This document shows positions 2,785 to 63,061 of a stretch of 64,000 nt of DNA, piece by piece. A program made the position numbers and the translations under genes. Numbering within the stretch: the stretch's first letter is position 1; the number at the start of each line of letters is the position of its first letter. Source of the DNA: a virus; IMG/VR virus record IMGVR_UViG_3300025645_004731, positions 26,616 through 90,615 of that record; one strand, given 5' to 3'. A model generated the notes under the pieces. That model was not told where the DNA came from, made no database searches, and saw only the letters and a program-made list of their open reading frames with translations.

Positions 2785-3083
2785 TAATACCATCCCATCA
2801 TCATACGAGTGTCTTCTGGAACCATTTCGATACTAAACGGAGGATCAAAAACTAGTTCTCTGTTTACAGTTTCGACACCCTCAAGTGCGCCAACTGCTGT
2901 TTCAATACCTTCACAAATCTCGTCTGCGAAAGGACACATCATGCTAGTCAGTGTATGCTTGATGTGTACCTCTGTATCTTTACAATTTACTTCGTAAATT
3001 AGTCCAAGCTCTTCTACGCTTAAACTGATTTCAGGATCATACACTTCTTTAAGTGCTTCCCTTACAATCTCTTCAGTTACCAT
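2784..3083 (-). CDS. MIP18/DUF59 family protein (Fe-S cluster assembly, SufT/PaaD-like)
   Basis: Residues 1-99 match the DUF59 layout: IVREALKEVYDPEISLSVEEL, ELGLIYEV, then TLTSMMCPFADEI with the conserved cysteine, and the C-terminal ELVFDPPFS...GWY. Family members assist Fe-S cluster maturation or act as cluster carriers. The ATG at 3083 follows a GGGAG Shine-Dalgarno 8 nt away and overlaps the metK stop by 7 nt, so it is probably co-expressed with SAM synthetase. A radical SAM enzyme (which needs a 4Fe-4S cluster) is encoded at 7.6-8.7 kb; a link is inference. Confidence 0.8.
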   Translation of the reverse strand: MVTEEIVREALKEVYDPEISLSVEELGLIYEVNCKDTEVHIKHTLTSMMCPFADEICEGIETAVGALEGVETVNRELVFDPPFSIEMVPEDTRMMMGWY

Positions 3084-4171
3084 CCTAATTTCTCCCAAGG
3101 TACATCTTTGTCACCAAAGTGTCCATATACGCAATTCGTACTATAATTAGTATAACTGAATAAATCGAATCTGTCAATGATTCCTTTTGGTGATAAGTCA
3201 ATTTCATTACGAATAAAACGCTCAATGCTGCGATTGTGTCCGTTACTGTCTACAAGAATACTAGTAGGTTGCTTAACACCAATAGCATAGCTCAACTGAA
3301 TGTTGCACCAATCTGCCATTTCATCTGCTACTACGTTCTTTGCTAACCAACGTGCCATGTAAGCAGCGGACCGATCAACCTTTGTTGGATCTTTGCCACT
3401 AAAAGCGCCACCACCGTGAGGAGCAAAACCCCCATAGGTATCAACAATAATCTTACGCCCAGTAACACCAGCGTCACCATCGGGCCCACCGATAACAAAG
3501 TTGCCAGTAGGATTAAGATGCCAGACAGTATTTTCATCAATTAAATCTCCCAGAGCATGGTGTGCTGCTTGTTTTGCAAGCACTCTCGCTGTTTCAATTT
3601 CGCCATCAGCATGTTGTGTGCTGATAACAATTTGGTCAATGCGCTTAACGATGCCTTCGCGCCTAGCACCTTCGTACTCCACACTCACTTGTGATTTAGC
3701 ATCAGGACCTAATACGCTGTCTAGTTTACGCAGTTCTTTTAGTTCTTTTAGAATTTCGTGACTGTAGTGAATAGGCGCTGGCATCATACTGTCTGTATGA
3801 TTACACGCATAGCCAAACATAATACCCTGATCACCAGCACCAAAGTCATCAGTGCCCAGCGCAATGTCAGCACTTTGTGAATGGATCTCGTTATAGATGT
3901 TTAGTTTATCCCAGTGAAATCCATCTTGCTCGTAACCAATGTCACGAACTTTGTTACGCACGATTTCTTTAACTTCGTCTCTGCTTACGTTAAAGTTTTT
4001 AACTTCGCCTGCTAACGTAACATGGTTAGTAGTTACAAGTGTTTCGACTGCTACTCGTGTTGTAGAGTCGCCAGCCTTTAATCCAGCATCTACCAGCGCA
4101 TCACTAATCTGATCCGCTACTTTATCTGGATGTCCGTCACTAACACTTTCGCTAGTAAAAATATAGTTCAT
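3077..4171 (-). CDS. metK: S-adenosylmethionine synthetase
   Basis: A 364-residue protein, somewhat shorter than the usual 384-400. It has GHPDK (residues 13-17), GAGDQG (111-116) and the glycine-rich GGGAFSGKDPTKVDRSAAY segment that binds ATP and methionine. All signature motifs are intact, so it should make SAM from ATP and methionine. The start forms an ATGA overlap with the upstream membrane protein gene. The phage encodes at least six methyltransferase-like genes and a radical SAM protein in this window, which would use the product. Very high confidence in the family. Confidence 0.97.
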   Translation of the reverse strand: MNYIFTSESVSDGHPDKVADQISDALVDAGLKAGDSTTRVAVETLVTTNHVTLAGEVKNFNVSRDEVKEIVRNKVRDIGYEQDGFHWDKLNIYNEIHSQSADIALGTDDFGAGDQGIMFGYACNHTDSMMPAPIHYSHEILKELKELRKLDSVLGPDAKSQVSVEYEGARREGIVKRIDQIVISTQHADGEIETARVLAKQAAHHALGDLIDENTVWHLNPTGNFVIGGPDGDAGVTGRKIIVDTYGGFAPHGGGAFSGKDPTKVDRSAAYMARWLAKNVVADEMADWCNIQLSYAIGVKQPTSILVDSNGHNRSIERFIRNEIDLSPKGIIDRFDLFSYTNYSTNCVYGHFGDKDVPWEKLGW

Positions 4172-5917: not shown

Positions 5918-6841
5918 TTAGCATTTCCAAATATATATCTTGTCTTGTTTCTTTTTGCCTGTTTGTTGGCCTAGTTGTTGCTTCAGGTCCTCTTCATCGT
6001 CACATACTGGTAGTCCGTGCGCGACGGCATCATCATACATCTTAGGACTGATGTTAAAACACACATGCCCTCCTGCTTGTATATTATCAACACACTTTTG
6101 CCAAAGAGGAATAAAAAAGCCTTTATAAAATGCTTCGTCACTGTTCCACACTTCCATATGTTCATATATTTCTAAGTTAACATAAGGAGGGCTAGTTAGC
6201 ACAAAATCATAATCCAGTTTACTGAAATCAACGTCCAACGCACTTTGCCAAATCATTTGTAATTTACCAGACTGCTTTTCTTCTATTAGTGGATTATTGA
6301 ATTCACTATAGTTACCAAGATACTCCATCATACTGTCATATGCCGGCTTCATGTTGGTGTTTGTGTCAATGCCTGTGTAGCTGATATCCAACGCCCACGC
6401 ACCCAACATACGTCCGCCCCAACCTGCTGTAGGATCCAATACACTTTTAACTGAATACTTCTTATACAGATACTTAGCTGTTGTGCTTTTGAACATTACG
6501 ATACTGCCGAGATTAATTCTAAAGCATTCAAACACATTGCCAGCAGCAGTACGTCCGCCTCTGTTACGCTTACGTGCGCTATCTATAAGTTTACTCCACG
6601 CTGATTTATCAGCATAAAGTTCATAGATAGTTTTGCCCTTCTCACGTTTACAGTTAAGCAGATTCTTAAACTGGAAATGATATAGGAAAGGATTGCCATA
6701 AAAGTTATTGCGATTCTCAGTAGCATCAAAGTTCTTTAAGTTTTTAAGATCCCTATTCAAATCATCATTACTAATCAGCTTGTGATCTTCCACATCTGTT
6801 ATTGTAACGCTGTCTAGATTTTCATTAACTGGTTTAAGCAT
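5918..6841 (-). CDS. DNA methyltransferase, TSPPY type (N4-C or N6-A)
   Basis: A 307-residue protein with SAM-binding motif I as DPTAGWGG (136-143), an acidic residue at GIDTN (motif II) and catalytic motif IV TSPPY (216-220). The order I then IV is seen directly. TSPPY is usual in N4-cytosine and some N6-adenine enzymes. Residues 94-110 (RGGRTAAGNVFECFR) are typical of phage relatives. It shares its first base with the last base of the upstream PD-(D/E)XK gene, so the two are translationally coupled and look like a methylase/nuclease pair. Confidence 0.85.
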   Translation of the reverse strand: MLKPVNENLDSVTITDVEDHKLISNDDLNRDLKNLKNFDATENRNNFYGNPFLYHFQFKNLLNCKREKGKTIYELYADKSAWSKLIDSARKRNRGGRTAAGNVFECFRINLGSIVMFKSTTAKYLYKKYSVKSVLDPTAGWGGRMLGAWALDISYTGIDTNTNMKPAYDSMMEYLGNYSEFNNPLIEEKQSGKLQMIWQSALDVDFSKLDYDFVLTSPPYVNLEIYEHMEVWNSDEAFYKGFFIPLWQKCVDNIQAGGHVCFNISPKMYDDAVAHGLPVCDDEEDLKQQLGQQTGKKKQDKIYIWKC

Positions 6842-24981: not shown

Positions 24982-25848
24982 TTATTGTTCTCGGCGGCGT
25001 TGCTCTTCGTGGAACAATCCTTCGATATATTTGTAATCTTTGTCGTATAATTCAACATCTTTCCTTAGCAGAGTACACCCAAATGCCGTGGGCCACACCA
25101 CGCTTATTGATAGCCAATCAGTTTTACTATACACACTGTATCGACTCCATAACCAATGCTCAAATGGAATTTCTGGATTTACTAGAAAATCACTTAATAG
25201 ATGCTTGTCGGTAGATGATAACTTTATTAATTCATTATCCATATTCTTTAAGAAATTATGCATCAGGTCTGGTTTTCCAATAAAACAAAAATCTCCGAAA
25301 AACGGCAGACCATTTTTAATTTTCAACCAAGGAGTAAAGATATTATCGCTAAACACTGAGTTTTTATACATATTATTAAACAACTGTAGCCATTGTCGTT
25401 CTGGGATATTATTAAATATGTTGTCTGTTCTTGTCTTGATAACAATGTCATATTCACTGAGTGGACCAGCCATTCTGGCGCCTCTTGCGCTAGCTAGATA
25501 CATACCTGGAAAATTATACGCATAGTTATCGTAATTTTCTCCTTGATAGCATACCAGATGCCGAATGTTCTCGGATGTTAGATCCCAGTCTGTGGCATCA
25601 GCGTTTGCCTGCCTAACTTGATGTCTATGACTATGAAACGCCTCGTCGTAGTTGCCAATTTCAAACTTTACTGGATCATATGCGTTAACAATTCGGTCGG
25701 CAAGATCATCTGACCCATCGTCCCACAAATAAACATAATAATCTACTTTTAGATTACCACAGGTTTTCGGAAAAACCTTTTCTCTATTCCAGAATCCTGA
25801 CTGCTGTACGTGCCTAGCTTGTCCCGTAATTAGTACAGCTATTCTCAT
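24982..25848 (-). CDS. Putative glycosyltransferase-like protein
   Basis: A 288-residue protein that opens MRIAVLITGQARH and contains YDIVIKTRTDN near residues 131-142, a nucleotide-sugar-binding-like RTD pattern seen in WavE-type and other poorly characterised glycosyltransferases. No membrane segment. It may modify phage or host glycans; the assignment rests on these short motifs only. Confidence 0.5.
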   Translation of the reverse strand: MRIAVLITGQARHVQQSGFWNREKVFPKTCGNLKVDYYVYLWDDGSDDLADRIVNAYDPVKFEIGNYDEAFHSHRHQVRQANADATDWDLTSENIRHLVCYQGENYDNYAYNFPGMYLASARGARMAGPLSEYDIVIKTRTDNIFNNIPERQWLQLFNNMYKNSVFSDNIFTPWLKIKNGLPFFGDFCFIGKPDLMHNFLKNMDNELIKLSSTDKHLLSDFLVNPEIPFEHWLWSRYSVYSKTDWLSISVVWPTAFGCTLLRKDVELYDKDYKYIEGLFHEEQRRREQ

Positions 25849-25861
25849 TTGTGCGTGCCTT

Positions 25862-26500
25862 TTATCCTATAGGTAGTTCAGTGTCTGGCGTATGAAAGTT
25901 TTTCTTACGCATTACTGTTTTTGCAACCAAGTCCAATTCTTTATTATTATTGTCCCAGTTTAACACAAACGGTACATTAACGTCACTGCGCATGTCTTTG
26001 ATAACAGCCTCGGCATCTGGACCCATCTGTGCGATTTGCTTTCCATACTTAGTATAAGCGTCTTTGAACAAAATAGCAAGCTCTTTTAACGTGATTTGTT
26101 GTTTATTTCGTGTATCATTCGCTCTGTCCAAGAAGTGCCTGGTGAACTCAACGTCCATGCCAAGATTCTTAAACAACGCATCAAGATACTCTTCTAACTT
26201 GTTTAGCATAATCTGTGTGATTTCTTTAGCATTTGCTTCATCTTCTGTGACTGAGAATTCATCACGATACATTTTCTCTAATTCTTTTGGGTTAAATCCA
26301 AACTCACGAGAAATTTGAAATGCGTAGCCGCCAATGCCCTGTCGATTACCGTCCGAACTCACTAGATCATGTAATGATTGTAACATACTGTTAATAAATC
26401 GCTGTTTTTGCGCAGCATTTAATTTATTAATCAGTTCATCTTTACTGATGGCTTCTGATAGTTCTGGAATATTATTTTCGATAAGTTCTGATAGTTTCAT
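25862..26500 (-). CDS. Conserved phage protein with head-targeting-like N-terminus
   Basis: A 212-residue helical protein starting MKLSELIENNIPELSEAISK; the second ATG (26500) was chosen because AAGGA sits 8 nt upstream. The C-terminal region VEFTRHFLDRANDTRNKQQI, DAEAVIKDMRSDVNVPFVLN is conserved in marine T4-like phages as I recall. The MK-x-x-E-L-I-E start matches the set discussed at 29-33 kb. Function unknown. Confidence 0.7.
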   Translation of the reverse strand: MKLSELIENNIPELSEAISKDELINKLNAAQKQRFINSMLQSLHDLVSSDGNRQGIGGYAFQISREFGFNPKELEKMYRDEFSVTEDEANAKEITQIMLNKLEEYLDALFKNLGMDVEFTRHFLDRANDTRNKQQITLKELAILFKDAYTKYGKQIAQMGPDAEAVIKDMRSDVNVPFVLNWDNNNKELDLVAKTVMRKKNFHTPDTELPIG

Positions 26501-32186: not shown

Positions 32187-32215
32187 TTGACAAGCAAGGC
32201 GCCATGGTGTATAAT
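32187..32215 (+). promoter_or_regulatory. Operator-type early promoter of the homing endonuclease
   Basis: -35 TTGACA (32187-32192), 17-bp spacer AGCAAGGCGCCATGGTG, -10 TATAAT (32210-32215). The leader GTACAGCAACAAAGAAAACG is close to those of the minus-strand early genes. Confidence 0.75.
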
Positions 32216-32246
32216 ATATGTACAGCAACAAAGAAAACGAATCAGC

Positions 32247-32903
32247 ATGAATATCTATCCCTCTTATACCTATCATATTTCCTGGACAAAGCAGGACAAA
32301 CACTATTATGGTGTTCGTGTAGCGAATCAATGTCAGCCAGAAGAAGACTTATGGATAGAGTATCATACTTCCTCCAATATTGTCAAGTCATTTCGTGAAG
32401 AATACGGCGAACCAGATATTATTCGTATAGACCAGACATTTGACACCCGTGAGGCAGCAGGCGAATATGAGATTCAATTCCTAACCGAGAATGAGTGTGT
32501 GTTCTCACCGAAATGGCTGAATATGGCAGCCTGGCCGATGGTTGACAATCGCGGTGAAAATCATTACCTGTATGGAAAAACTCGTTCCAAAGAAACCAAA
32601 AGAAAAATGTCTGAGGCGAAGAAGGGAAAAAATCATCCCATGTATGGAAAAACTCATTCCGAAGAAGCCAAAAGAAAACAGTCCGAGGCGAAGAAGGGAA
32701 AAACTCCTTCCGAAGAACACAGAAGAAAATTATCTGAGGCGAGCAAGGGTAAACCACAATCCGAAGAACACTCAAGAAAAATATCTGAGGGGCTGATGGG
32801 AAAACCACAAGAAAAAGTTACATGCCCCCACTGTAAGAAGACAGGTGGTGTTTCCGGTATGACAAGATATCATAACGATAACTGTAAGAAAAAAGTCAAG
32901 TAG
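32247..32903 (+). CDS. GIY-YIG-like homing endonuclease with NUMOD3 repeats
   Basis: The ATG at 32247 gives a 218-residue protein. Residues about 5-75 are a diverged GIY-YIG domain ([15 protein letters not shown], then an AAGEYE region with the conserved Glu). Residues about 105-190 contain four copies of the NUMOD3-type repeat SEE-x-x-RK-x-SEA-KGK (for example [36 protein letters not shown]), a DNA-binding element of homing nucleases. A C-terminal CPHCKKTGG zinc-like motif follows. It is the only plus-strand gene from 5.8 to 48 kb and carries its own early promoter, as expected of a mobile gene. Confidence 0.85.
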
Positions 32904-37242: not shown

Positions 37243-37271
37243 AATATACACCAAGGCATCTTGGTTGTCAA
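37243..37271 (-). promoter_or_regulatory. Operator-type early promoter
   Basis: -35 TTGACA (37271-37266), 17-bp spacer ACCAAGATGCCTTGGTG with the dyad at 37251-37264, -10 TATATT (37248-37243). Drives the 81-residue gene and uvdE. Confidence 0.85.
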
Positions 37272-48760: not shown

Positions 48761-49288
48761 TTAACTCTTTCGCTTCCCTCGACTCTTTGGGTTGTTAGCC
48801 CAGTATACCGTATTCGGCGGCAATATTCCCCACATAAACCACGCATTACCAAAGTGCGGTGCTCCACCGCCGGTAAAGTCCACTCGGTTATTGTACACCA
48901 ATGTAGACATACCATAATCCATAAACATCTGCCCACGTTTGCCACCTTGGAATGATGCTACAGGTAGGAATAACGCAAATGGTTTTTTCAATGAATAGCA
49001 ATGCGCAATAAATTTATCCTTTAGACTGTATGGTGGATTTGTGATGATCCCGTCATGTACATCCTCGCTGGTACACTCAAAGAAATCTTTGCCGTTGCTG
49101 CCCACCATATTATAGCCGTGCTTGTGGAACCCGTCAAGTACATTAGACGAAATTCCACTGGTTGCCTCATAGTAGGTCTTGTCTTTGTCAAGATATTCCA
49201 ATAGAGGAATTACTTGGTCAGATGGCGTATAGCATTCATCACTTTCAGCATTCCGTGATGTGCGCTTTATCATTTCGAGGTTACTCAT
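48761..49288 (-). CDS. DNA adenine methyltransferase-like protein
   Basis: A 175-residue protein with NPPY at 84-87 (IITNPPYSLKDKF) and an N-terminal region (CYTPSDQVIPLLEYLDK) like motif X and I regions of small phage N6-adenine methylases. A clear DPACGxG motif I is absent; YYEATSGISS occupies its place. Activity is therefore uncertain. Confidence 0.7.
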   Translation of the reverse strand: MSNLEMIKRTSRNAESDECYTPSDQVIPLLEYLDKDKTYYEATSGISSNVLDGFHKHGYNMVGSNGKDFFECTSEDVHDGIITNPPYSLKDKFIAHCYSLKKPFALFLPVASFQGGKRGQMFMDYGMSTLVYNNRVDFTGGGAPHFGNAWFMWGILPPNTVYWANNPKSRGKRKS

Positions 49289-50155: not shown

Positions 50156-50184
50156 GTTATACACCAAGGCGCATTGAATGTCAA
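50156..50184 (-). promoter_or_regulatory. Operator-type early promoter
   Basis: -35 TTGACA (50184-50179), 17-bp spacer TTCAATGCGCCTTGGTG, -10 TATAAC (50161-50156). Confidence 0.8.
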
Positions 50185-52669: not shown

Positions 52670-53524
52670 TTAATCATTTCTTTCTCCAACGCCCCAGCAT
52701 TTGTTTTCATGTTGTCTTAGATTTCCCTTACCTAAAATTTCTTTATTACAACAACTACAAATATAAGTGTTATCTGCTATCCACTCTGGACTATTCCTAG
52801 TATTAATGCGTTTTTGGTCTGCTTTTTGCCTAATCGATAAACCATCTTCTTCAGAAATGCTCATTGAATGAGCACCTTTGCGAGACGCGGCTTGATGAAT
52901 GGTTAACCCATTTTCTTGAATTTGAGATTTGGTTTTTTCACCTTTGATAGAAGATCGTTCGGCATTTGTTAACCCGTCGGGTCCAACCGTCATTTTAGTT
53001 ATTGAACATTTTTTACTTGCTTTTTCCATTGAAGTCGTCCCATCTTCGTCTGTTAAACGTTTTGTCATGACGCCCTTTTGCGCTGAAATTTTCCTCCCCA
53101 CTTCGCCCATAGTTTCTATTTGTTTTTTTCTACCTCTTTGAAATGAATTCAATCCATCTTTTCCTATAAGAAGTTTTTTCTCTATTATGCGATTCATTAT
53201 TTTAGGATTTTGCGCTGGATTTTCAATACCCCAATTATTGTTAGATTCGTTATAAAATAATGGGTTCATTGCTGCGTTTATTTTTTGAAGAAATCTTGTT
53301 TCAAAAGAAAGAGCATTATTCATATGTATTAATTTACAAACTTCGAATCTTTCGGTTCCATGTTCTTGAATAAGATCATTAATAATCGAAGATGAAGTGA
53401 AATAACCGTTTTCTTTCCAAAATAACGACGAATTTGCGTCCTTTCCATATTTTGAACCAGAATAATACTGACCTGTTACGATGTCACGTATTCTATAATA
53501 GTATTGAGAATAAATATTAGACAT
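52670..53524 (-). CDS. GIY-YIG-like endonuclease with 22-residue repeats and zinc finger
   Basis: A 284-residue protein. N-terminal diverged GIY-YIG domain (YYYRIRDIVTGQYYSGSKYG, SFETRFLQ with the likely Glu). Middle region with five D/E-x-(D/N)-G-L/T-T/S-x-x-x-x-x-x-K units at a 22-residue period (the first carries an extra 16 residues). C-terminal C2-HC-like zinc finger (CSCCNKEILGKGNLRQHENK C). Probable homing nuclease. It interrupts the early cluster between the ligase and 52.2 kb gene. Confidence 0.7.
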   Translation of the reverse strand: MSNIYSQYYYRIRDIVTGQYYSGSKYGKDANSSLFWKENGYFTSSSIINDLIQEHGTERFEVCKLIHMNNALSFETRFLQKINAAMNPLFYNESNNNWGIENPAQNPKIMNRIIEKKLLIGKDGLNSFQRGRKKQIETMGEVGRKISAQKGVMTKRLTDEDGTTSMEKASKKCSITKMTVGPDGLTNAERSSIKGEKTKSQIQENGLTIHQAASRKGAHSMSISEEDGLSIRQKADQKRINTRNSPEWIADNTYICSCCNKEILGKGNLRQHENKCWGVGERND

Positions 53525-55239: not shown

Positions 55240-55268
55240 GTTATACACCAAGGCACCTTGGTTGTCAA
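55240..55268 (-). promoter_or_regulatory. Operator-type early promoter
   Basis: -35 TTGACA (55268-55263), 17-bp spacer ACCAAGGTGCCTTGGTG with perfect dyad arms, -10 TATAAC (55245-55240). Confidence 0.9.
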
Positions 55269-55736: not shown

Positions 55737-55765
55737 GTTATACACCAAGGCACCTTGGTTGTCAA
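55737..55765 (-). promoter_or_regulatory. Operator-type early promoter
   Basis: -35 TTGACA (55765-55760), spacer identical to that at 55.25 kb, -10 TATAAC (55742-55737). Confidence 0.9.
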
Positions 55766-56274: not shown

Positions 56275-57081
56275 TTATTTTATACCATTCCACACCGCGA
56301 ATATCTCAGATGCTTTTTTCCTAGACCCAGCAGAAGCAGAGATACTTCTAGTTACCGAAATTTGTTGAAACTTTGCGCCCTTATACAATGTTCGTGCCAT
56401 CGGAACATCGTGATTGGAAACAACGACTCTGACACCATTGCTTGCCAATGATTGGCAAATATCTGCCAACTCTTCTTGCTGTTCCATGCTAAATCCTTCT
56501 TTGGTGTAAGCAGTGAAATTCGCAGTCTCAGACGCGGGAAGATACGGAGGGTCAAAATAAACAACATCTCCTTCACCCAAATCGGTGTAATAAGATGGAT
56601 CATTGAACGATGTATTTTTGAATGTTACACCACTAAACTTGTTCTTGAAATTTTTTATTTCTTCTTCTGGGAAATGTACTTTGTCATACGCACCAAATGG
56701 TGAATTGTAATTTCCACTTTTATTATATCGTGTTAGTCCGTTGAAACAATGTCTGTTCAAATACAAAAACAAGTAAGGTGAACGAGTTTCATTGAACTCG
56801 TCTCGTATCTTATTGAACTTTTCTCGGTCTATGCCATTAATGTAATACTGCTTGGCGGTGTCTATAAAATTCTCGTCAAATAAAACCGCATTGTATAAAT
56901 CGATGATGTCAGAGTTAATATCTCCAATTCTATATTCAGTTGCGGAGGTGTTCAAGGACACGACAAAAGAACCGCCAAACGGTTCAACAAATGTATTTGG
57001 GTTGCCGATGTGTTGCTGCAACGCATCCATAACACGAATTTTATTGCCTAGCCATTTTAGTATTGATTTTTTATATGTCAT
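56275..57081 (-). CDS. dam: DNA adenine methylase (Dam, D12 class)
   Basis: ATG 57081, 268 residues. MTYKKSILKWLGNKIRVMDA (KWxGxK, motif X/I), VEPFGGSFVVSLN (motif I), RFNGLTRYN-like (CFNGLTRYNKSGNYNSPFG), and DPPY in VVYFDPPYLPASE (motif IV). All motifs of GATC-type Dam enzymes are present. Another start 27 nt upstream is less likely since it has no ribosome-binding site and alters the conserved N-terminus. Confidence 0.92.
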   Translation of the reverse strand: MTYKKSILKWLGNKIRVMDALQQHIGNPNTFVEPFGGSFVVSLNTSATEYRIGDINSDIIDLYNAVLFDENFIDTAKQYYINGIDREKFNKIRDEFNETRSPYLFLYLNRHCFNGLTRYNKSGNYNSPFGAYDKVHFPEEEIKNFKNKFSGVTFKNTSFNDPSYYTDLGEGDVVYFDPPYLPASETANFTAYTKEGFSMEQQEELADICQSLASNGVRVVVSNHDVPMARTLYKGAKFQQISVTRSISASAGSRKKASEIFAVWNGIK

Positions 57082-57116
57082 AAAGTTAGTATACCCTATA
57101 TAATGCATTTTTGCAA
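57081..57116 (-). promoter_or_regulatory. Sigma70-type promoter directly before dam (possible leaderless start)
   Basis: -35 TTGCAA (57116-57111), 17-bp spacer, -10 TATACT (57093-57088). The predicted +1 falls on the dam start codon. Confidence 0.5.
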
Positions 57117-57148
57117 TGGTATTTATTTACGTTCAAGATCATAGTCAT
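57086..57148 (-). CDS. Possible 20-residue leader peptide before dam
   Basis: ATG at 57148 after the early-promoter leader opens MTMILNVNKYHCKNALYRVY and stops 5 nt before the dam ATG. Could be a translated leader or a remnant. Low confidence. Confidence 0.3.
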   Translation of the reverse strand: MTMILNVNKYHCKNALYRVY

Positions 57149-57180
57149 AGTGATTCTCTTTTCTCTGTTGCTATACATAT

Positions 57181-57209
57181 AATATACACTAAGTTACCTC
57201 GGTTGTCAA
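57181..57209 (-). promoter_or_regulatory. Operator-type early promoter (dyad decayed)
   Basis: -35 TTGACA (57209-57204), 17-bp spacer ACCGAGGTAACTTAGTG, -10 TATATT (57186-57181). Confidence 0.75.
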
Positions 57210-57211
57210 GC

Positions 57212-57241
57212 AAAAAGCGCAACAATAAATGCTGCGCTTTC
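57212..57241 (-). terminator. Rho-independent terminator, cassette copy 2
   Basis: Same stem as at 50.2 kb (57214-57221 with 57233-57240), T-run on the minus strand. Ends the methyltransferase transcript and abuts the next promoter. Confidence 0.85.
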
Positions 57242-57266
57242 AATAACTTATAAAATAGTCTGAGAT

Positions 57267-57740
57267 TTATTCGAATAAACTATTAAAGTGTTCCTGTTTT
57301 TGTTGTTCTTTCACTTCATCGTCGTATGGATGCGAATCGTCAAAGCGATAATGATAGCGTAGTCCGTCGGCACACACAATATTCTGCTCCACGATATGGC
57401 GTAGATCCTCTCGCCCACATAGCAATCTGTCCTGACACAATTTAACATTGTCTGGCATTAGGTCTACGCCATAAGTGGTGCTTAACGCAGTTTCAAAGTC
57501 ATGCTCGTTTTGTAGTTTGCGATATAACACACTAGCGAGAAACTGACCGTCACCACACGCTGGGTCTAGGAATGTTTTGGTAGAATCAATAAACAATTCA
57601 GCATCCATCTTGTCTAGTATTTCTTCTACAAGAGGAGTAGGTGTAAACACCTCGCCAGTTGCCTTAACACGACTATGCTCACGGTCTGTGCCGCTCATAT
57701 ATTCTCTGTCGAATAAGTGACTGTGTATATCAGTAATCAT
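57267..57740 (-). CDS. N6-methylase N-terminal-type protein (SAM-binding half)
   Basis: A 157-residue protein: GEVFTPTPLVEEILDKM (motif X) and FLDPACGDGQFLASVLYRKL (motif I), YGVDLMPDNVKLCQDRL (motif II). This is the SAM-binding half of an Eco57I/N6 methylase; the catalytic NPPY is missing. The adjacent upstream gene has NPPY but no motif I, so the two may work together as a split enzyme. Ends in an acidic tail. Confidence 0.75.
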   Translation of the reverse strand: MITDIHSHLFDREYMSGTDREHSRVKATGEVFTPTPLVEEILDKMDAELFIDSTKTFLDPACGDGQFLASVLYRKLQNEHDFETALSTTYGVDLMPDNVKLCQDRLLCGREDLRHIVEQNIVCADGLRYHYRFDDSHPYDDEVKEQQKQEHFNSLFE

Positions 57741-58524
57741 AGTTATCCATTCTGATGCTTTTCATTGCTCCTAGTGTCATGTTATTCATTCCTCCACATG
57801 CGCCCAATGCTTGACTTACAAATTCGGGCGTTTTCATATATTCAGTCAGATATTTTGCTTCTTCGTGTGTGTCCACAAACGCCAGGTTTACTCCATTAGT
57901 AGCTACTGCTGTTCCGTCACATATCACGATTTCAGTATTTGTCCAACCATCACGCTGAATCTGTTGTGGCATAATGACAGCATAACCATCCTGCGGAAAA
58001 AACTTCAACGTAGAAATATTTTCACTTGTCGTTGACTGTGTTAATCCTTTGCCGTTTATTTTATGGTAAACAGTATAAGGACCAGGCGTATCAGTCAACA
58101 AGTGCTTTTCTGTTGTCACGTTTACTTTGCCTTTCGCCCATTTAACTTTTTGTTCTGGAAGTTCTTTCAAATCTGCCCAGTCGATGTGCTCAACGTTAGT
58201 CTCGCTATTATCTTTTATTAAGCACCACGTTGATATATTGACATCAAACGTGCCATCATCTACTGACATTATCTTATTCGTGTTCTCTCGGATAAAGGAG
58301 TTAAATATGGTGTGCTGTCTACTAGTGTTCGGCACAATCATTATCACAGTATCCGCCATTGCTGTCGCCATTTTGTAAAACGCCGGGTATAGGTTGGGCG
58401 CTCTGCCTTTTTTACCAGTTTTATTTCCTGCTAAACTATAGGGTGGGTTGGCTACTATTGCATCGAATTGTACGTCCTTCAAATCAAAAAACTCCTGGTA
58501 TGTAATGTAGTTTATATCTAACAT
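57730..58524 (-). CDS. N6-methylase catalytic-half protein (NPPY type)
   Basis: ATG 58524, 264 residues. NPPY at 26-29 (FDAIVANPPYSLAGN). Downstream is a target-recognition-like region with no SAM-binding motif I. It overlaps the SAM-binding gene downstream by 11 nt. The 5' end is nearly identical in DNA to part of the gene at 59.3 kb, suggesting recombination. A longer start (58590) is possible. Confidence 0.7.
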   Translation of the reverse strand: MLDINYITYQEFFDLKDVQFDAIVANPPYSLAGNKTGKKGRAPNLYPAFYKMATAMADTVIMIVPNTSRQHTIFNSFIRENTNKIMSVDDGTFDVNISTWCLIKDNSETNVEHIDWADLKELPEQKVKWAKGKVNVTTEKHLLTDTPGPYTVYHKINGKGLTQSTTSENISTLKFFPQDGYAVIMPQQIQRDGWTNTEIVICDGTAVATNGVNLAFVDTHEEAKYLTEYMKTPEFVSQALGACGGMNNMTLGAMKSIRMDNYDY

Positions 58525-58795
58525 AATTTTCAAACAACTCCTTAACTTCGTCATTAGTCCATTTTTTATTTTTATCAAACGGCGGAACATATTTTAAAGC
58601 ATCATTAAACCCTGTATTATATAATTTTTTCCACTTATCCATGTGATCTAAAAAATACTGGCTGAATAAAAATGATTTAATGTTTTCTATCTGCTCGTCG
58701 TTTTCTATTTCTATAATAACATATTGTGTTTCAAAGTCTAAGTGCGATATTTGAATAATCTCTTCTTTAAAACTTTTACTTCTAGAAATGCTCAT
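58484..58795 (-). CDS. Methyltransferase C-terminal fragment-like protein
   Basis: A 103-residue protein with FLFSQYFLDHMDKWKKLYNT and DALKYVPPFDKNKKWTNDEV, a pattern found at the C-termini of Eco57I-like methylases. It has no catalytic motif. Overlaps the next gene by 41 nt; its last codons run over the duplicated DNA. May be the detached C-terminus of the 58.8-59.5 kb gene. Confidence 0.55.
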   Translation of the reverse strand: MSISRSKSFKEEIIQISHLDFETQYVIIEIENDEQIENIKSFLFSQYFLDHMDKWKKLYNTGFNDALKYVPPFDKNKKWTNDEVKELFENYVRYKLHYIPGVF

Positions 58796-59547
58796 TTTTT
58801 CTTACCAGTAAACCACGGCTCTCTTTTACTGTACGCACTTAGTATTAGTTCGTCGTCTTTTACTTTATATGCAGGATAGATATGATCTGCTGTTTTTGTT
58901 TTATTATAAGCAGGTCCGTGATTGTTCTGTTTAAATGCTCTATCTGCAATAGGTAATTTTCCTAAAGCCTGTGCTAGTTCTGCAAACTTAATATCAGTTA
59001 CTGAAGGATCAAATACAGAAGTACCAAATTTGACATAATCAACACCAGCATCTGAAATTACTTTGATGTCGCCGCTATATGTTTTGTCTACGATCCAGCT
59101 ACATATTTTTGCTCCAACATTAAAATGTTTATCGGCAGTAAAGTCAATTTCTTTTACACCGTGCGTTTCTGTTAATGCAAATCTTTTAGAAAGATTAGCT
59201 ACAGCAACAGGAGTAACAAAGTTAACTGTGCCTGTTTCACTTACAAGCTCTATTGCTTTTTTAGAAAACTGGTTATAAATTTTATTTTGCTGATTGTCTT
59301 TGATGCTGTTATCCTGATAGGGTGGATTGCCGATCACTGCGTCAAATTGTACGTCCTTCAAATCAAAATACTCCTGTTGTGTAATGTAGTTTATATTCAA
59401 TGCCGATTCGTCAATGCCGTTTGCCCGAAAATACATGGACCAACGTTTCTGTGATAATCTATTTTCCAAATACACCCAGTCGCCAAGTTTGATAGTTTTC
59501 ACTTGGGCCTTAATGTGCAGATTGCTATAAACATGTAGTGTTTTCAT
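58792..59547 (-). CDS. Eco57I-like N6-methylase, motif I absent
   Basis: ATG 59547 (or GTG 59553), 251 residues. NPPYQ at 74-78 (FDAVIGNPPYQDNS), then KHFNVGAKICSWIVDKTYSG typical of Eco57I-type C-termini. The N-terminus lacks DPACGxG. 62 bp near the NPPY region is about 89% identical to 58.46-58.52 kb. Probable member of a methylase array. Confidence 0.65.
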   Translation of the reverse strand: MKTLHVYSNLHIKAQVKTIKLGDWVYLENRLSQKRWSMYFRANGIDESALNINYITQQEYFDLKDVQFDAVIGNPPYQDNSIKDNQQNKIYNQFSKKAIELVSETGTVNFVTPVAVANLSKRFALTETHGVKEIDFTADKHFNVGAKICSWIVDKTYSGDIKVISDAGVDYVKFGTSVFDPSVTDIKFAELAQALGKLPIADRAFKQNNHGPAYNKTKTADHIYPAYKVKDDELILSAYSKREPWFTGKKK

Positions 59548-59584
59548 GGCCACTTATCTCTTGATAATTTTTACTTACTACTAT

Positions 59585-59613
59585 ACTATACACCAAGGCA
59601 CCTCGGTTGTCAA
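59585..59613 (-). promoter_or_regulatory. Operator-type early promoter
   Basis: -35 TTGACA (59613-59608), 17-bp spacer ACCGAGGTGCCTTGGTG, -10 TATAGT (59590-59585). Confidence 0.8.
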
Positions 59614-59646
59614 GTGTTATTTGATATGTGATTCAATGTATTTTAT

Positions 59647-60750
59647 TCATTTTACCATGCCCCGTCTATCAATCTTGCCAATGGTTTCTTTTTCGGTGTC
59701 GCTTAGTTTATAAATATCCATGATTTCATCATCTGTCATTTCTACAGTCACCTCGGGATGTAAATACAATGCTGACCAGAAATTATGATACCATCTTTTA
59801 TCTAGAACAACAAATCCATCCCACGCAACTCGCGCAAACATATTGGTTTTTAACAAACGCTTTAATTTTTCGGGTTCATCATGTGTCCAATATAAGTTGG
59901 TATCTTTCGCAGTGTTATCAAACGTTAGGTAGCCATATCTTGAAGTGGAAAATCCCTTAGTTGTTAAATCTTTATCACGCGCAATTGAAATAGGGGCTTT
60001 ATTATTAATAATTTTTTCTGCAACTGATTGTAGTTCACATTCGTTGGTATAAAATCCAACATCATTAAAATTGGTCATCTTATTGTTAATAGTTGCGCCC
60101 ACAATATCCTCTGTTTTAATTCCAATAAAATAACAGATTTTAATACCTACTGTAAAGTAGCTAGAAACATCTGTTTCGGCTTTTAAAATATTGATACCTT
60201 TCATACCAGAAATAGCAGTGCCACATTGACCATAAACAGTTGTTTTGAATATAGCGGACGGCACAACTAACGCAACAATTCCGTCATCTTTTAATAAATT
60301 CGATATTTTTTCCATAACAGAAACATACATCTTTTTTCCGCCACCTTGGTTCGTTTTTTTGTTGGCACGAACTGGATTCTGGTACGGAGGATTACCAACT
60401 ACAGCATCAAATTTCATATTCATTAATTCCTTAATCATAATATACTTATATCCTAGATGCTCCGTGATTTTTTTTGTTTCTGGACAAAAATTCTCAGTAG
60501 CAACAGTGACATTTTTTGCTCCTCGGTCGAATAATTCAGCCGCGAATTCAACAGCGAACAACACCAAGAAACTTTCGTGTTTGTGACTGATCGAATCTAA
60601 CATTCTACGAACAAGTCGGCTGGGCGTATATGGCACCGGATTATTGGTGAATGTCGGGCCCTTTGCACCAGATCTCAATGTACAAATGACCCCACCCTCT
60701 TCATTGCTAATTATATTTCTAAACTTGCTTTTCTCAGATAATAGGCCCAT
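59647..60750 (-). CDS. Eco57I-like N6-methylase with degenerate SAM motif
   Basis: A 367-residue protein. Motif X-like VPYTPSRLVRRMLDSI (39-54), a degenerate motif I region FLVLFAVEFAAEL (61-73), NPPYQ at 120-124 (FDAVVGNPPYQNP), and SSYFTVGIKICYFIG typical of this class. The motif I change (no DPxCGxG) may mean altered SAM binding or reliance on the partner at 57.3 kb. Confidence 0.7.
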   Translation of the reverse strand: MGLLSEKSKFRNIISNEEGGVICTLRSGAKGPTFTNNPVPYTPSRLVRRMLDSISHKHESFLVLFAVEFAAELFDRGAKNVTVATENFCPETKKITEHLGYKYIMIKELMNMKFDAVVGNPPYQNPVRANKKTNQGGGKKMYVSVMEKISNLLKDDGIVALVVPSAIFKTTVYGQCGTAISGMKGINILKAETDVSSYFTVGIKICYFIGIKTEDIVGATINNKMTNFNDVGFYTNECELQSVAEKIINNKAPISIARDKDLTTKGFSTSRYGYLTFDNTAKDTNLYWTHDEPEKLKRLLKTNMFARVAWDGFVVLDKRWYHNFWSALYLHPEVTVEMTDDEIMDIYKLSDTEKETIGKIDRRGMVK

Positions 60751-60781
60751 AGTGATTCTCTTTTTTTGTTTCTATACTGCA

Positions 60782-60810
60782 GTTATACACCAAGGCACCT
60801 CGGTTGTCAA
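60782..60810 (-). promoter_or_regulatory. Operator-type early promoter
   Basis: -35 TTGACA (60810-60805), 17-bp spacer ACCGAGGTGCCTTGGTG, -10 TATAAC (60787-60782). Confidence 0.85.
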
Positions 60811-60823
60811 GCGAAAAATAAAA

Positions 60824-61588
60824 TTAAAGCTTGGCTAATAGATCATCTTCTTCTTTTAATTTATTCTGCATAGTTTCCCATTCTGGATCCTTGGGTCCGT
60901 TAATAAGTAATGGCATTATGCCGAGTTTTTTACGGAATTCATTCCAAAAGAATGGATTTCCATTAATTTTTTTACTAATTTTCTTGTAGTTTATCACTTC
61001 GATATCGCCGAAGGTATTCGCTTCTAGTTTATAATGTAATCCTTTGGCAGTAGTAAAAAGAATATAACGAGCAAAGCATCCTTGACCAGACATTCTGGCA
61101 TGTCCTTGGGCATTGCCGAAAAAGTTCATGACTCTGCTGCCATCATTGGTGGTATGCTCTTTTGTTGGATTTAAGCTACCCTTAACTTGAAGATATACTG
61201 GGCTTCCAGATTTCGAAATCTTGCGAATTCTTTTACCATAAGATTTTTCTTGGGATGTATTTGCTGTTGCGTCATATCCCGTGTCTTCTAGATCCTCGTC
61301 GATTGTATCCATACTGATATAACTTCCTAAATTATAATCACTGAGTCCGAAAGTTTCAAAGAATACTTCACTCAATGCCTCTACCCCTGCTCCGAAATAT
61401 CTTGGTGCCTTGATGCTTTTATTATCCTCGTCTGTATGTGACATCCGTAAATCCTCACGATACGGAATTAATGCATCAATATTGTTTGATTGTTTTTTTA
61501 GAGCAAGAAGGAACTTATCTAATTTCTGAATTTTATCGAATGCGGTAGTATCAATACAATACTTAAACCAACTATGTTTATTTGACAT
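60824..61588 (-). CDS. QxK-type PD-(D/E)XK nuclease (Mrr-like)
   Basis: A 254-residue protein. GAGVEALSEVFF (67-78) supplies an early Glu, TGYDA (103-107) the Asp, and VYLQVKGS (131-138) the Q-x-K, which fits the E...D...QxK pattern of Mrr-like nucleases found at the N-termini of type ISP and related restriction enzymes. Its ATG shares one base with the helicase stop. Together they resemble the R part of a multifunctional restriction enzyme. Confidence 0.65.
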   Translation of the reverse strand: MSNKHSWFKYCIDTTAFDKIQKLDKFLLALKKQSNNIDALIPYREDLRMSHTDEDNKSIKAPRYFGAGVEALSEVFFETFGLSDYNLGSYISMDTIDEDLEDTGYDATANTSQEKSYGKRIRKISKSGSPVYLQVKGSLNPTKEHTTNDGSRVMNFFGNAQGHARMSGQGCFARYILFTTAKGLHYKLEANTFGDIEVINYKKISKKINGNPFFWNEFRKKLGIMPLLINGPKDPEWETMQNKLKEEDDLLAKL

Positions 61589-63000
61589 TATTGTACTTCC
61601 TTCGCTGATGTATCAAACAATTCCCAGAATAATGCGTCCTGGCCTTCTGTTACTAGAATATCGGTTGCTTCCTTATAAATTGCATCATCACGATCCATCA
61701 ACTCACCGCCTGGCGTCGGCATATTATGTTGATCCTCAACATCTGCCCAGAACTCAGCAAGATCATAGCCACCTTGCTCAAACATGGCAGCATAGGTAGA
61801 TAAATTGGAATCACCTGCCCATTCTCCGTTGAATCTGGCAATAGTAACAATACATTCTGTCTTGATTCGATTCTTGCGAAGTTCTCCGGCAAGAGCACCA
61901 GACTTGATAATATCAGCGTTTGCCGCACGGCACCCACGGCCGATTGTCTGAATTGCTTTTACCATGCCAAGACCGCGCAAGATCAACACTCCGCCGATGC
62001 CGTCAACATCAATGCCTTCGGCTAATGTATCACAATGCATGATGATAGAAGGATTAGGATTTTTAGCAAAGTCGGCAACTAGCGCATCTCGGTCCATCTG
62101 TAGGCTACCGTTCTTCACTGCTGTATCAGCAGTAACATAATAAAGATCAATATCGTTATTTCCTACAATATTGCGAATCTCACTCAATTCGTTCGCAATA
62201 TCCGAAAAGTTCATGGTATTGGGCATTGCTACCAACATCTTATGAACGAAATCCTTATGCGCAAATGTCAGTTGGTCCTTAAACGCCGCGGCGATAGCAG
62301 ATACATAATCTTCGGTATTGCCGTTATCAGTACTGAGAACATTTACAGTACGAATTCGCGGGCGGACAATATATCCGTTAGGAATAAGTTCTTTTGGCGA
62401 TACATCAGCAATCACTGGTCCAAATAGTTCAACATTATCCATACTCGCTTCTGCTGCTGCCATACGAACGGGCGTACCAGTATAGAACAGTGTCTTTGAT
62501 TTAAACAGATGCATATTCTCGCGCAGGTCAGATTGTACTAGATAGTGCGCTTCATCACAGATGATAAGATCAAAGTTCATAGCAGCGATACGATGTAAAC
62601 TTTTATAACTTGAAAATGTTATATGCGCTCCATTATGAGAATTCATAATTTCTTGCAACACGTTCGTATCTGTAGTGGATACATTCTTCTTATCGTTCAG
62701 AGTATGCGTCTTTGCTTGACCGCTATGAAAGTTCGTAAACTCAATTCCCATGCCGGCGAATGTTTTAGCAAAACGATTTTGCTGATTCTGGCTTAGTGCT
62801 ATACGTGGATGAACTACAAGAATACGTGCTGCGCCGTGAGACATAGCAGTAACTACTTTCATAATTAAATCTTGAAAAACTTCTGTTTTGCCGCCGCCAG
62901 TAGCACATAAAATAGTGCCACGGGTAGCATCAGGATCAGACATGAATTTATCTTGTGCCTGTATCATGCGAACTTGGTATGGTCTAAACTTCATAGTCAT
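61588..63000 (-). CDS. SF2 helicase/ATPase (restriction-type)
   Basis: A 470-residue protein. Walker A ATGGGKTEVF (33-42), DEAH (149-152, LIICDEAHYL), TGTPVRM motif III, QTIGRGCRA motif VI. N-terminal RPYQVRMIQ Q-like motif. Domains order as in restriction-type (HsdR/ISP) and UvsW-like helicases. Its partner is the QxK nuclease; a recombination helicase is the alternative. Confidence 0.8.
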   Translation of the reverse strand: MTMKFRPYQVRMIQAQDKFMSDPDATRGTILCATGGGKTEVFQDLIMKVVTAMSHGAARILVVHPRIALSQNQQNRFAKTFAGMGIEFTNFHSGQAKTHTLNDKKNVSTTDTNVLQEIMNSHNGAHITFSSYKSLHRIAAMNFDLIICDEAHYLVQSDLRENMHLFKSKTLFYTGTPVRMAAAEASMDNVELFGPVIADVSPKELIPNGYIVRPRIRTVNVLSTDNGNTEDYVSAIAAAFKDQLTFAHKDFVHKMLVAMPNTMNFSDIANELSEIRNIVGNNDIDLYYVTADTAVKNGSLQMDRDALVADFAKNPNPSIIMHCDTLAEGIDVDGIGGVLILRGLGMVKAIQTIGRGCRAANADIIKSGALAGELRKNRIKTECIVTIARFNGEWAGDSNLSTYAAMFEQGGYDLAEFWADVEDQHNMPTPGGELMDRDDAIYKEATDILVTEGQDALFWELFDTSAKEVQ

Positions 63001-63032: not shown

Positions 63033-63061
63033 GTTATACACCAAGGCGCATTGGTTGTCAA
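63033..63061 (-). promoter_or_regulatory. Operator-type early promoter of helicase-nuclease pair
   Basis: -35 TTGACA (63061-63056), 17-bp spacer ACCAATGCGCCTTGGTG, -10 TATAAC (63038-63033). Confidence 0.85.

What the first reader, a model, noticed from the sequence alone, without database searches (positions are those of the whole stretch)
56275..63000. Dispersed restriction-modification-like cluster: helicase, QxK nuclease, and several Eco57I-like methylase pieces
In transcription order: SF2 helicase (61588-63000), QxK nuclease (60824-61588), methylase with degenerate motif I and NPPYQ (59647-60750), NPPYQ methylase without motif I (58792-59547), a detached C-terminal piece (58484-58795), an NPPY protein (57730-58524), a SAM-binding half (57267-57740), then Dam. 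These are the parts of a type ISP or related single-chain enzyme (nuclease, helicase, methylase, target recognition) spread over separate genes under operator-type early promoters. Motifs and order are seen; that they form one system is inference. It could be a phage-borne weapon against host or rival DNA, or against superinfecting phage.
Basis: partly seen in the sequence, partly recalled or inferred. Interest (0 to 1): 0.85.

Follow-up and report, generated by a model that had tools for sequence, protein, structure and literature searches.

The report
Phage restriction machine in separate genes
This phage carries the working parts of a DNA-cutting-and-marking machine (motor, nuclease, marking enzyme) as separate genes, and its marking enzyme is itself split so that one cofactor-binding subunit seems to serve several interchangeable DNA-reading subunits, a layout seen again in hundreds of other phages and bacteria.

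Summary
The genes are real and at the stated coordinates. The helicase profile's two best PDB matches are the type ISP enzymes LlaBIII and LlaGI (7e-31, 1e-30). The nuclease keeps an E..D..QxK site, and its best (weak) PDB match is the LlaBIII nuclease domain. Three genes are Eco57I/NPPY methylase halves and one is a SAM-binding half with intact motif I.

It is one system. Helicase, nuclease, NPPY methylase and SAM half sit together, same strand, in shuffled order, in cyanophages (ACG-2014f, S-CAM7, Bellamy), in a 333-kb phage contig and in many IMG/VR contigs. Searching from the methylase alone, 45 of 53 distinct loci have a stand-alone SAM half within 1.5 kb.

The deeper finding is a split adenine methylase. 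The SAM-binding half is its own small subunit, while partner methylases mostly start at NPPY or have lost motif I; in bacteria 71 of 73 have DPxxKSG. Fused NPPY-TRD-SAM proteins exist and fold as one enzyme. One SAM half often sits with 2-5 NPPY/TRD paralogues whose target-recognition regions have diverged.

I propose a dispersed type-ISP-like restriction-modification complex with one shared SAM subunit and several specificities. Activity, complex formation and target are untested; some partners keep motif I.

The parts
61588..63000 (-). SF2 helicase/translocase subunit (470 aa), all motifs intact
   Evidence: Pfam ResIII 8e-18; profile best PDB hits LlaBIII 7e-31 and LlaGI 1e-30; motifs
60824..61588 (-). 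PD-(D/E)xK nuclease subunit (254 aa), site E70..D106..Q134xK136; start codon overlaps the helicase stop
   Evidence: near-invariant residues in 12 relatives; best PDB profile hit LlaBIII nuclease domain 71-153, E 0.084; AF2 pLDDT 84, Foldseek top hits MspJI and BstEII at E 1e-3; homologues in cyanophages 4e-6 to 4e-8
59647..60750 (-). MT1: adenine methylase with NPPYQ and TRD, pseudo SAM site (LFAVEF instead of DPxxGxG)
   Evidence: Eco57I 8e-13; motif I absent, shared with 12 relatives
58792..59553 (-). MT2: NPPYQ half plus most of a TRD, no motif I; ends at an A6 run
   Evidence: Eco57I 2e-11
58484..58795 (-). C-terminal piece of MT2 (103 aa), continuous with MT2 after a -1 shift at AAAAAA, or translationally coupled (ATGA)
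   Evidence: frame analysis
57730..58524 (-). MT3: NPPYS catalytic half plus TRD, no SAM-binding half
   Evidence: Eco57I 3e-7; TRD unalike MT1/MT2, 7-19% identity against 26-34% in the catalytic part
57267..57740 (-). Stand-alone SAM-binding half (157 aa): motif X VFTP and motif I DPACGDG, no NPPY; the only one in the 90.6-kb record
   Evidence: N6_Mtase 7e-7, phrog_11371 4e-21; single copy in record
56275..57108 (-). D12/Dam-type adenine methylase, probably an independent neighbour under its own promoter
   Evidence: Pfam D12 9e-52; promoter 57209-57181
63035..63061 (-). promoter with palindromic spacer before helicase-nuclease
60784..60810 (-). promoter with palindromic spacer before MT1
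59587..59613 (-). promoter with palindromic spacer before MT2-Cp-MT3-SAM half

Best explanation
The cluster encodes a type-ISP-like restriction-modification machine taken apart into subunits. MT1, MT2(+Cp) and MT3 are alternative recognition/catalytic subunits: each has its own TRD and the NPPY base-flipping site but no usable SAM site of its own. The 157-aa SAM half is a common cofactor subunit that completes an N6-adenine methylase with any of them, so phage DNA becomes methylated at each target. At an unmethylated target an MT subunit recruits the helicase, which translocates, and the E-D-QxK nuclease cuts. Restriction thus needs MT + helicase + nuclease, and modification needs MT + SAM half. 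The victim is most likely unmodified host or competing-phage DNA. Shown: the gene set, motifs, family relationships, conserved linkage, loss of motif I, permuted natural fusions, and one SAM half with several MTs. Inferred: complex formation, trans-complementation, cleavage, target and purpose.
For: Four-part cassette, same strand, shuffled order, in ACG-2014f, S-CAM7 and Bellamy, in a 333-kb phage contig and many other contigs. From the SAM half: 52 of 63 distinct loci have an NPPY methylase within 6 kb or fused, and every matched neighbour is on the same strand. From the methylase: 45 of 53 have a SAM half within 1.5 kb on the same strand, 19 have all four parts, and no nuclease lacks a helicase. 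Helicase and nuclease profiles both rank LlaBIII first in the PDB. Split enzyme: natural NPPY-TRD-SAM fusions; their profile matches CamA 140-415 with its N-terminal part and M.BseCI 5-92 with its C-terminal part, a direct permutation; AF2 pLDDT 88, pTM 0.85, nearest solved folds CamA, M.TaqI, BrxX, M.BseCI. In L074 the NPPY gene is 56% identical to the fused L064 protein but its SAM half is a separate overlapping gene. Motif I: all SAM halves of the 80 bacterial loci keep GxG, while 71 of 73 partner methylases have Lys for the first Gly; phage partners are degenerate or truncated in most cases. Sharing: one stand-alone SAM half per genome with up to five MTs, TRDs 7-32% identical in most pairs against 17-61% in the catalytic part. 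LlaGI flips its target adenine without AdoMet (PMC4872093), so a SAM-less MT can still read DNA.
Against: No biochemistry. The nuclease-LlaBIII match is weak (E 0.084) and the Foldseek TM-scores for the nuclease are low (~0.35). Of 53 distinct methylase-first loci, 14 have a methylase with an apparently intact motif I (DPxxGGG), and 10 of these still have a SAM half, so the SAM half is not only a replacement for a lost site. MT1-type proteins keep a pseudo SAM domain that would have to make room for the SAM half. A P-SSM2-like group has NPPY + SAM half + helicase with no recognised nuclease. The pairing of MT1 with the SAM half is not modelled.
Confidence: 0.66

Rival explanations
1. Anti-restriction module (works like P1 DarB): the methylase/helicase assembly modifies or shields incoming or nascent phage DNA from host type I-like restriction, and the nuclease is an accessory or repair enzyme.
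For: DarB-like proteins combine methylase and helicase (own knowledge); MT2 touches phrog_10089 DarB-like, E 0.08. A P-SSM2-like group has MT + SAM + helicase without a recognised nuclease.
Against: The nuclease active site is kept in every aligned relative that spans it, and no nuclease locus lacks the helicase. The helicase profile is nearest LlaBIII/LlaGI. Virion packaging could not be tested.
Confidence: 0.15
2. Modification only: the three MTs plus SAM half methylate phage DNA at several sequences to evade several host restriction systems; helicase and nuclease serve an unrelated recombination or repair function.
For: Multi-MT arrays with one SAM half and no helicase/nuclease nearby exist (L060, L203). 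Jumbo phages are known to carry several methylases (PMC7824862).
Against: Helicase and nuclease recur with MT + SAM half in 19 of 53 distinct loci from the methylase side and are nearest to restriction translocases, not UvsW or XPB. In bacteria the helicase is fused to a GIY-YIG/T5orf172 nuclease in the same operon.
Confidence: 0.14
3. Decayed remnant: a formerly single-chain or intact R-M gene broken into pieces by mutation, with no function.
For: Motif I lost in MT1-MT3; MT2 interrupted at an A6 run.
Against: The same breaks occur at the same place in dozens of distinct phages, all other motifs are intact, and the pseudo-motif itself is conserved.
Confidence: 0.03

Closest known systems
Type ISP restriction enzymes LlaGI / LlaBIII
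   Same: PD-QxK Mrr-like nuclease, SF2 translocase, gamma-class N6A methylase with TRD (PMC3874165, PMC4872093); helicase and nuclease profiles rank them first
   Different: Single chain with its own methylase domain; here at least four genes, a detached SAM half and several MT/TRD subunits
Bacterial three-gene operon 'N-6 DNA methylase' + 'Eco57I methylase' + 'GIY-YIG nuclease' (NCBI names, no system name found)
   Same: Stand-alone SAM half next to a methylase with altered motif I and an SF2 helicase
   Different: Nuclease is GIY-YIG (T5orf172/MUG113) fused to the helicase; the methylase keeps a DPxxKSG domain
PADLOC type IIG PDLC03626 (1359 aa)
   Same: Helicase part matches the helicase, and methylase part the methylase, of the split operon in phage NatCom_35866
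   Different: One chain; the window proteins were not among its listed matches
Type I R-M (HsdR/HsdM/HsdS)
   Same: Separate restriction, modification and specificity functions; swappable specificity
   Different: Here specificity sits with the catalytic NPPY half and the shared subunit is the SAM-binding half; no HsdS seen
Circularly permuted M.EcoKI-like Dams of jumbo phages (PMC7824862)
   Same: Motif IV before motif I in one chain, as in the L064 and phiAS5 fusions
   Different: The passages found in that review do not describe the split, shared-subunit or helicase/nuclease-linked form
P1 DarB / polyvalent anti-restriction proteins
   Same: Methylase and helicase domains together in a phage
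   Different: Weak sequence match only (E 0.08); nuclease present; separate genes

Membership tests
Type ISP restriction enzymes | Mrr-like PD-QxK nuclease | tested here: met
   E70/D106/Q134xK136 near-invariant; best PDB profile hit is the LlaBIII nuclease, but weak at E 0.084
Type ISP restriction enzymes | SF2 translocase of the LlaGI/LlaBIII kind | tested here: met
   7e-31 and 1e-30, ahead of all other solved helicases
Type ISP restriction enzymes | gamma-class N6A methylase with C-terminal TRD | tested here: inconclusive
   NPPY and TRD present, but motif I absent and found in a separate gene
Type ISP restriction enzymes | single polypeptide | tested here: not met
   at least four genes; therefore filed as 'works like', not as a member
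Type ISP restriction enzymes | head-to-head two-site, ATP-dependent cleavage | not testable with these tools
   needs biochemistry
Eco57I/N6-adenine gamma-class methylases | NPPY motif IV | tested here: met
   MT1, MT2, MT3
Eco57I/N6-adenine gamma-class methylases | motif I (DPxxGxG) in the same chain | tested here: not met
   absent from MT1-MT3, present in the separate SAM half
Type I R-M | HsdS specificity subunit with two TRDs | not tested
   no HsdS family appeared among the cluster's Pfam hits; no dedicated search made
DarB-like anti-restriction | very large methylase-helicase protein | tested here: not met
   separate small genes; phrog_10089 only E 0.08
DarB-like anti-restriction | packaged in the virion and injected | not testable with these tools
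   needs virion proteomics

The most novel reading that the evidence does not exclude
A general, undescribed class of split N6-adenine methylases: a stand-alone SAM-binding subunit (motifs X-III) is shared by a set of interchangeable catalytic/target-recognition subunits that begin at motif IV or have a dead motif I. This gives combinatorial specificity and lets restriction (MT + translocase + nuclease) run independently of modification (MT + SAM half). SAM-half relatives (stand-alone or fused) number at least 454 places in IMG/VR and 555 in bacterial and archaeal genomes, both capped scans.
Probability: 0.5. Interest if true: 0.88.

Novelty: new variant of a known kind. Interest (0 to 1): 0.74.

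Why it matters
If right, a large set of proteins annotated 'hypothetical' or 'DNA methyltransferase' in marine T4-like and jumbo phages become parts of one predicted restriction-modification machine. DNA methylases would also have a modular form in which cofactor binding and base targeting lie on different subunits and one cofactor subunit serves many specificities. It is directly testable with two or three small proteins and nanopore or SMRT sequencing. It would also give restriction-modification an unusual control point: supply of the SAM subunit decides whether DNA at a target is marked, while the other subunits decide whether it is cut.

Tried and rejected
megablast of the cluster against phages: no match. 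tblastn of the nuclease against phages: no match; it was reached only through the cyanophage homologue. MT3 against phages: no match. Single-protein scans of viral contigs with the nuclease, MT2 and helicase: no relatives, so the MT2/Cp interruption could not be checked against near copies. The helicase alone found nothing in the PDB at 1e-3; the 15-sequence profile was needed.

Considered and rejected: helicase as UvsW/XPB repair helicase; cluster as decayed debris; the SAM half as simply a broken gene (63 distinct clusters, all but 7 of them not fused to NPPY); strict 'SAM half only replaces lost motif I' (partners with intact motif I exist).

Literature searches found no description of the split/shared arrangement in the open-access library; subscription papers and REBASE notes could not be searched.
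Full report
WHAT IS THERE. The window is bases 26616-90615 of a 90,615-base IMG/VR virus record from a phage with a DNA polymerase (phrog_262), DNA ligase and ClpA-like ATP-dependent protease subunit. Pfam and PHROGs give a ResIII/DEAD helicase, an unnamed protein of phrog_7683, three Eco57I methylase proteins, an N6_Mtase SAM-binding half, and a D12 Dam.

Promoters with a palindromic -35/-10 spacer occur 14 times in the window against none expected. Three lie before the helicase, MT1 and MT2; a related site precedes Dam. None of the family was found before the nuclease, Cp, MT3 or the SAM half. The transcription units are therefore likely helicase-nuclease, MT1, and MT2-Cp-MT3-SAM, with Dam separate (inference).

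IS IT ONE SYSTEM? Synechococcus phage ACG-2014f has SAM half, nuclease, degenerate-motif-I NPPY methylase and helicase as four consecutive genes. S-CAM7 has nuclease-methylase-helicase-SAM half. Bellamy has helicase-methylase-nuclease-SAM half. A 333-kb phage contig has helicase-nuclease-methylase-SAM half contiguously, and its nuclease is 59% identical to the window's. The order is shuffled but the set is kept, which is strong evidence for a shared function.

Starting from the SAM half, 63 distinct clusters (80% identity) gave 52 with an NPPY methylase within 6 kb or fused, and every profile-matched neighbour was on the same strand. A few of those loci had been fetched by the nuclease, so the nuclease count there is not unbiased. 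Starting from the methylase alone, a reciprocal test, 45 of 53 distinct loci had a stand-alone SAM half within 1.5 kb on the same strand, 19 had all four parts, and no nuclease occurred without the helicase. Some loci are short contigs, so these are lower bounds. Ten records of 113-494 kb each held one stand-alone SAM half, so chance adjacency is negligible.

WHAT KIND OF MACHINE? A 15-sequence helicase profile finds LlaBIII (7e-31) and LlaGI (1.2e-30) first among all PDB sequences, then XPBII (1e-23), with UvsW at 1e-11. A 12-sequence nuclease profile finds the nuclease domain of LlaBIII first; the E-value is only 0.084, but the alignment is over GVD...QxK, the catalytic segment. The AF2 model of the window nuclease (pLDDT 84) finds MspJI and BstEII restriction folds at E about 1e-3 with low TM-scores. 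Type ISP enzymes are single chains of PD-QxK nuclease, translocase, gamma methylase and TRD (PMC3874165). In the window nuclease and translocase each have their own gene and the methylase/TRD has several. Being multi-gene, it fails the single-chain criterion, so I say it works like type ISP and not that it is one.

THE SPLIT METHYLASE. The SAM half ends after motif III; the NPPY proteins start at or just before motif IV, or carry a domain whose motif I is replaced.

(a) Natural one-chain fusions in the order NPPY-TRD-SAM exist in seven contig clusters and in Aeromonas phages CC2 and phiAS5. Their profile hits CamA 140-415 with residues 6-250 and M.BseCI 5-92 with residues 310-400, a direct circular permutation. 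The fusion from L064 is predicted as one compact fold (pLDDT 88, pTM 0.85) nearest CamA, M.TaqI, BrxX and M.BseCI. In L074 the same NPPY protein (56% identical) is a separate gene overlapping its SAM half. This fission/fusion pair shows the halves belong together.

(b) In 80 bacterial loci, 62 have SAM half + methylase + helicase. Every SAM half keeps the GxG of motif I, while 71 of 73 partner methylases have DPxxK[ST]G. In the tested example the helicase carries a T5orf172/MUG113 (GIY-YIG) domain, and NCBI names the three genes 'N-6 DNA methylase', 'Eco57I methylase' and 'GIY-YIG nuclease'. Lactococcus plasmid pUC047G has the SAM half next to a 1461-aa chain in which no DPxxGxG or DPxxKxG motif was found by pattern.

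(c) One stand-alone SAM half accompanies several MTs: three in the window, four in L060, five in L203, three in L103; L206 also has five MTs and one stand-alone SAM half in its record, though not next to all of them. In ACG-2014f US44 two NPPY-only genes lie 100 kb from the only SAM half. Within arrays the catalytic part is 17-61% identical and the TRD mostly 7-32%, as expected for different targets.

MECHANISM. LlaGI flips its target adenine into the NPPY pocket without AdoMet (PMC4872093), so an MT lacking a SAM site could still recognise DNA for restriction. I therefore propose that MT + helicase + nuclease restrict, and MT + SAM half modify. The trans-complementation step is inferred. It is best supported for MT2 and MT3, which lack the SAM domain, and less clear for MT1, which keeps a pseudo-domain. 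The main complication is the group with apparently intact motif I (14 of 53 distinct methylase-first loci) that mostly still has a SAM half (10 of 14). There the small subunit may act as a partner or regulator. Whether the victim is host or rival DNA cannot be told from sequence.

MT2/Cp. MT2 stops at GGT AAG AAA AAA TGA; the next ORF starts at the overlapping ATGA, and a -1 slip over A6 reads through to the C-terminal part of the TRD region. Sequencing error, homopolymer phase variation, programmed frameshifting and a true coupled split are all possible; no near copy was found.

LITERATURE. The jumbo-phage survey PMC7824862 mentions circularly permuted Dams but, in the passages found, no split or shared form. 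Nine searches of the open library found no description. Absence there is not proof of novelty.

VERDICT. Observation confirmed and interpretation supported, with a larger pattern behind it. I rate it a new variant of a known kind (restriction-modification).

Noticed in passing
window 55242-55268, 55739-55765, 63035-63061, 60784-60810, 59587-59613, 50158-50184, 37245-37271 and others: Fourteen near-identical promoters TTGACA-ACCAAGGNGCCTTGGTG-TATA with a palindromic spacer (0 expected by chance), suggesting a dispersed operator for one phage repressor or activator.
   Followed up: partly
window 58792-58810: MT2 and its C-terminal piece are joined by an A6 run (AAG AAA AAA TGA); a -1 shift restores one reading frame, a candidate for phase variation, programmed frameshifting or sequencing error.
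   Followed up: partly
window 3077-4171: ORF whose start reads like S-adenosylmethionine synthetase (MetK; recognised by eye), matching phrog_1569 of unknown function at 1e-113; it could supply SAM for the phage's many methylases.
   Followed up: no
window 48761-49288: A further small DNA methylase-like protein (phrog_799, 1e-29) with DECYTP near its start.
   Followed up: no
window 32187-32903 and the record at 25180-25872: Two near-identical plus-strand ORFs ([29 protein letters not shown]), GIY-YIG-like mobile element candidates; another GIY-YIG-like ORF lies at 52670-53524.
   Followed up: no
window 6044-6301: Weak fourth Eco57I hit (E 3e-4, below cut-off) in a 317-aa open frame.
   Followed up: no
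L003 5511-6899 (P-SSM2 038): In P-SSM2 a 462-aa protein with no Pfam match sits between SAM half and helicase; it carries an NGNHRWLW stretch reminiscent of ParB-type nucleases (by eye).
   Followed up: no
L183 8680-13169 (Aerococcus kribbianus): Helicase fused to the pseudo-SAM domain (DPYAKSG), with the NPPY half as a separate gene: the same split point reached another way.
   Followed up: partly
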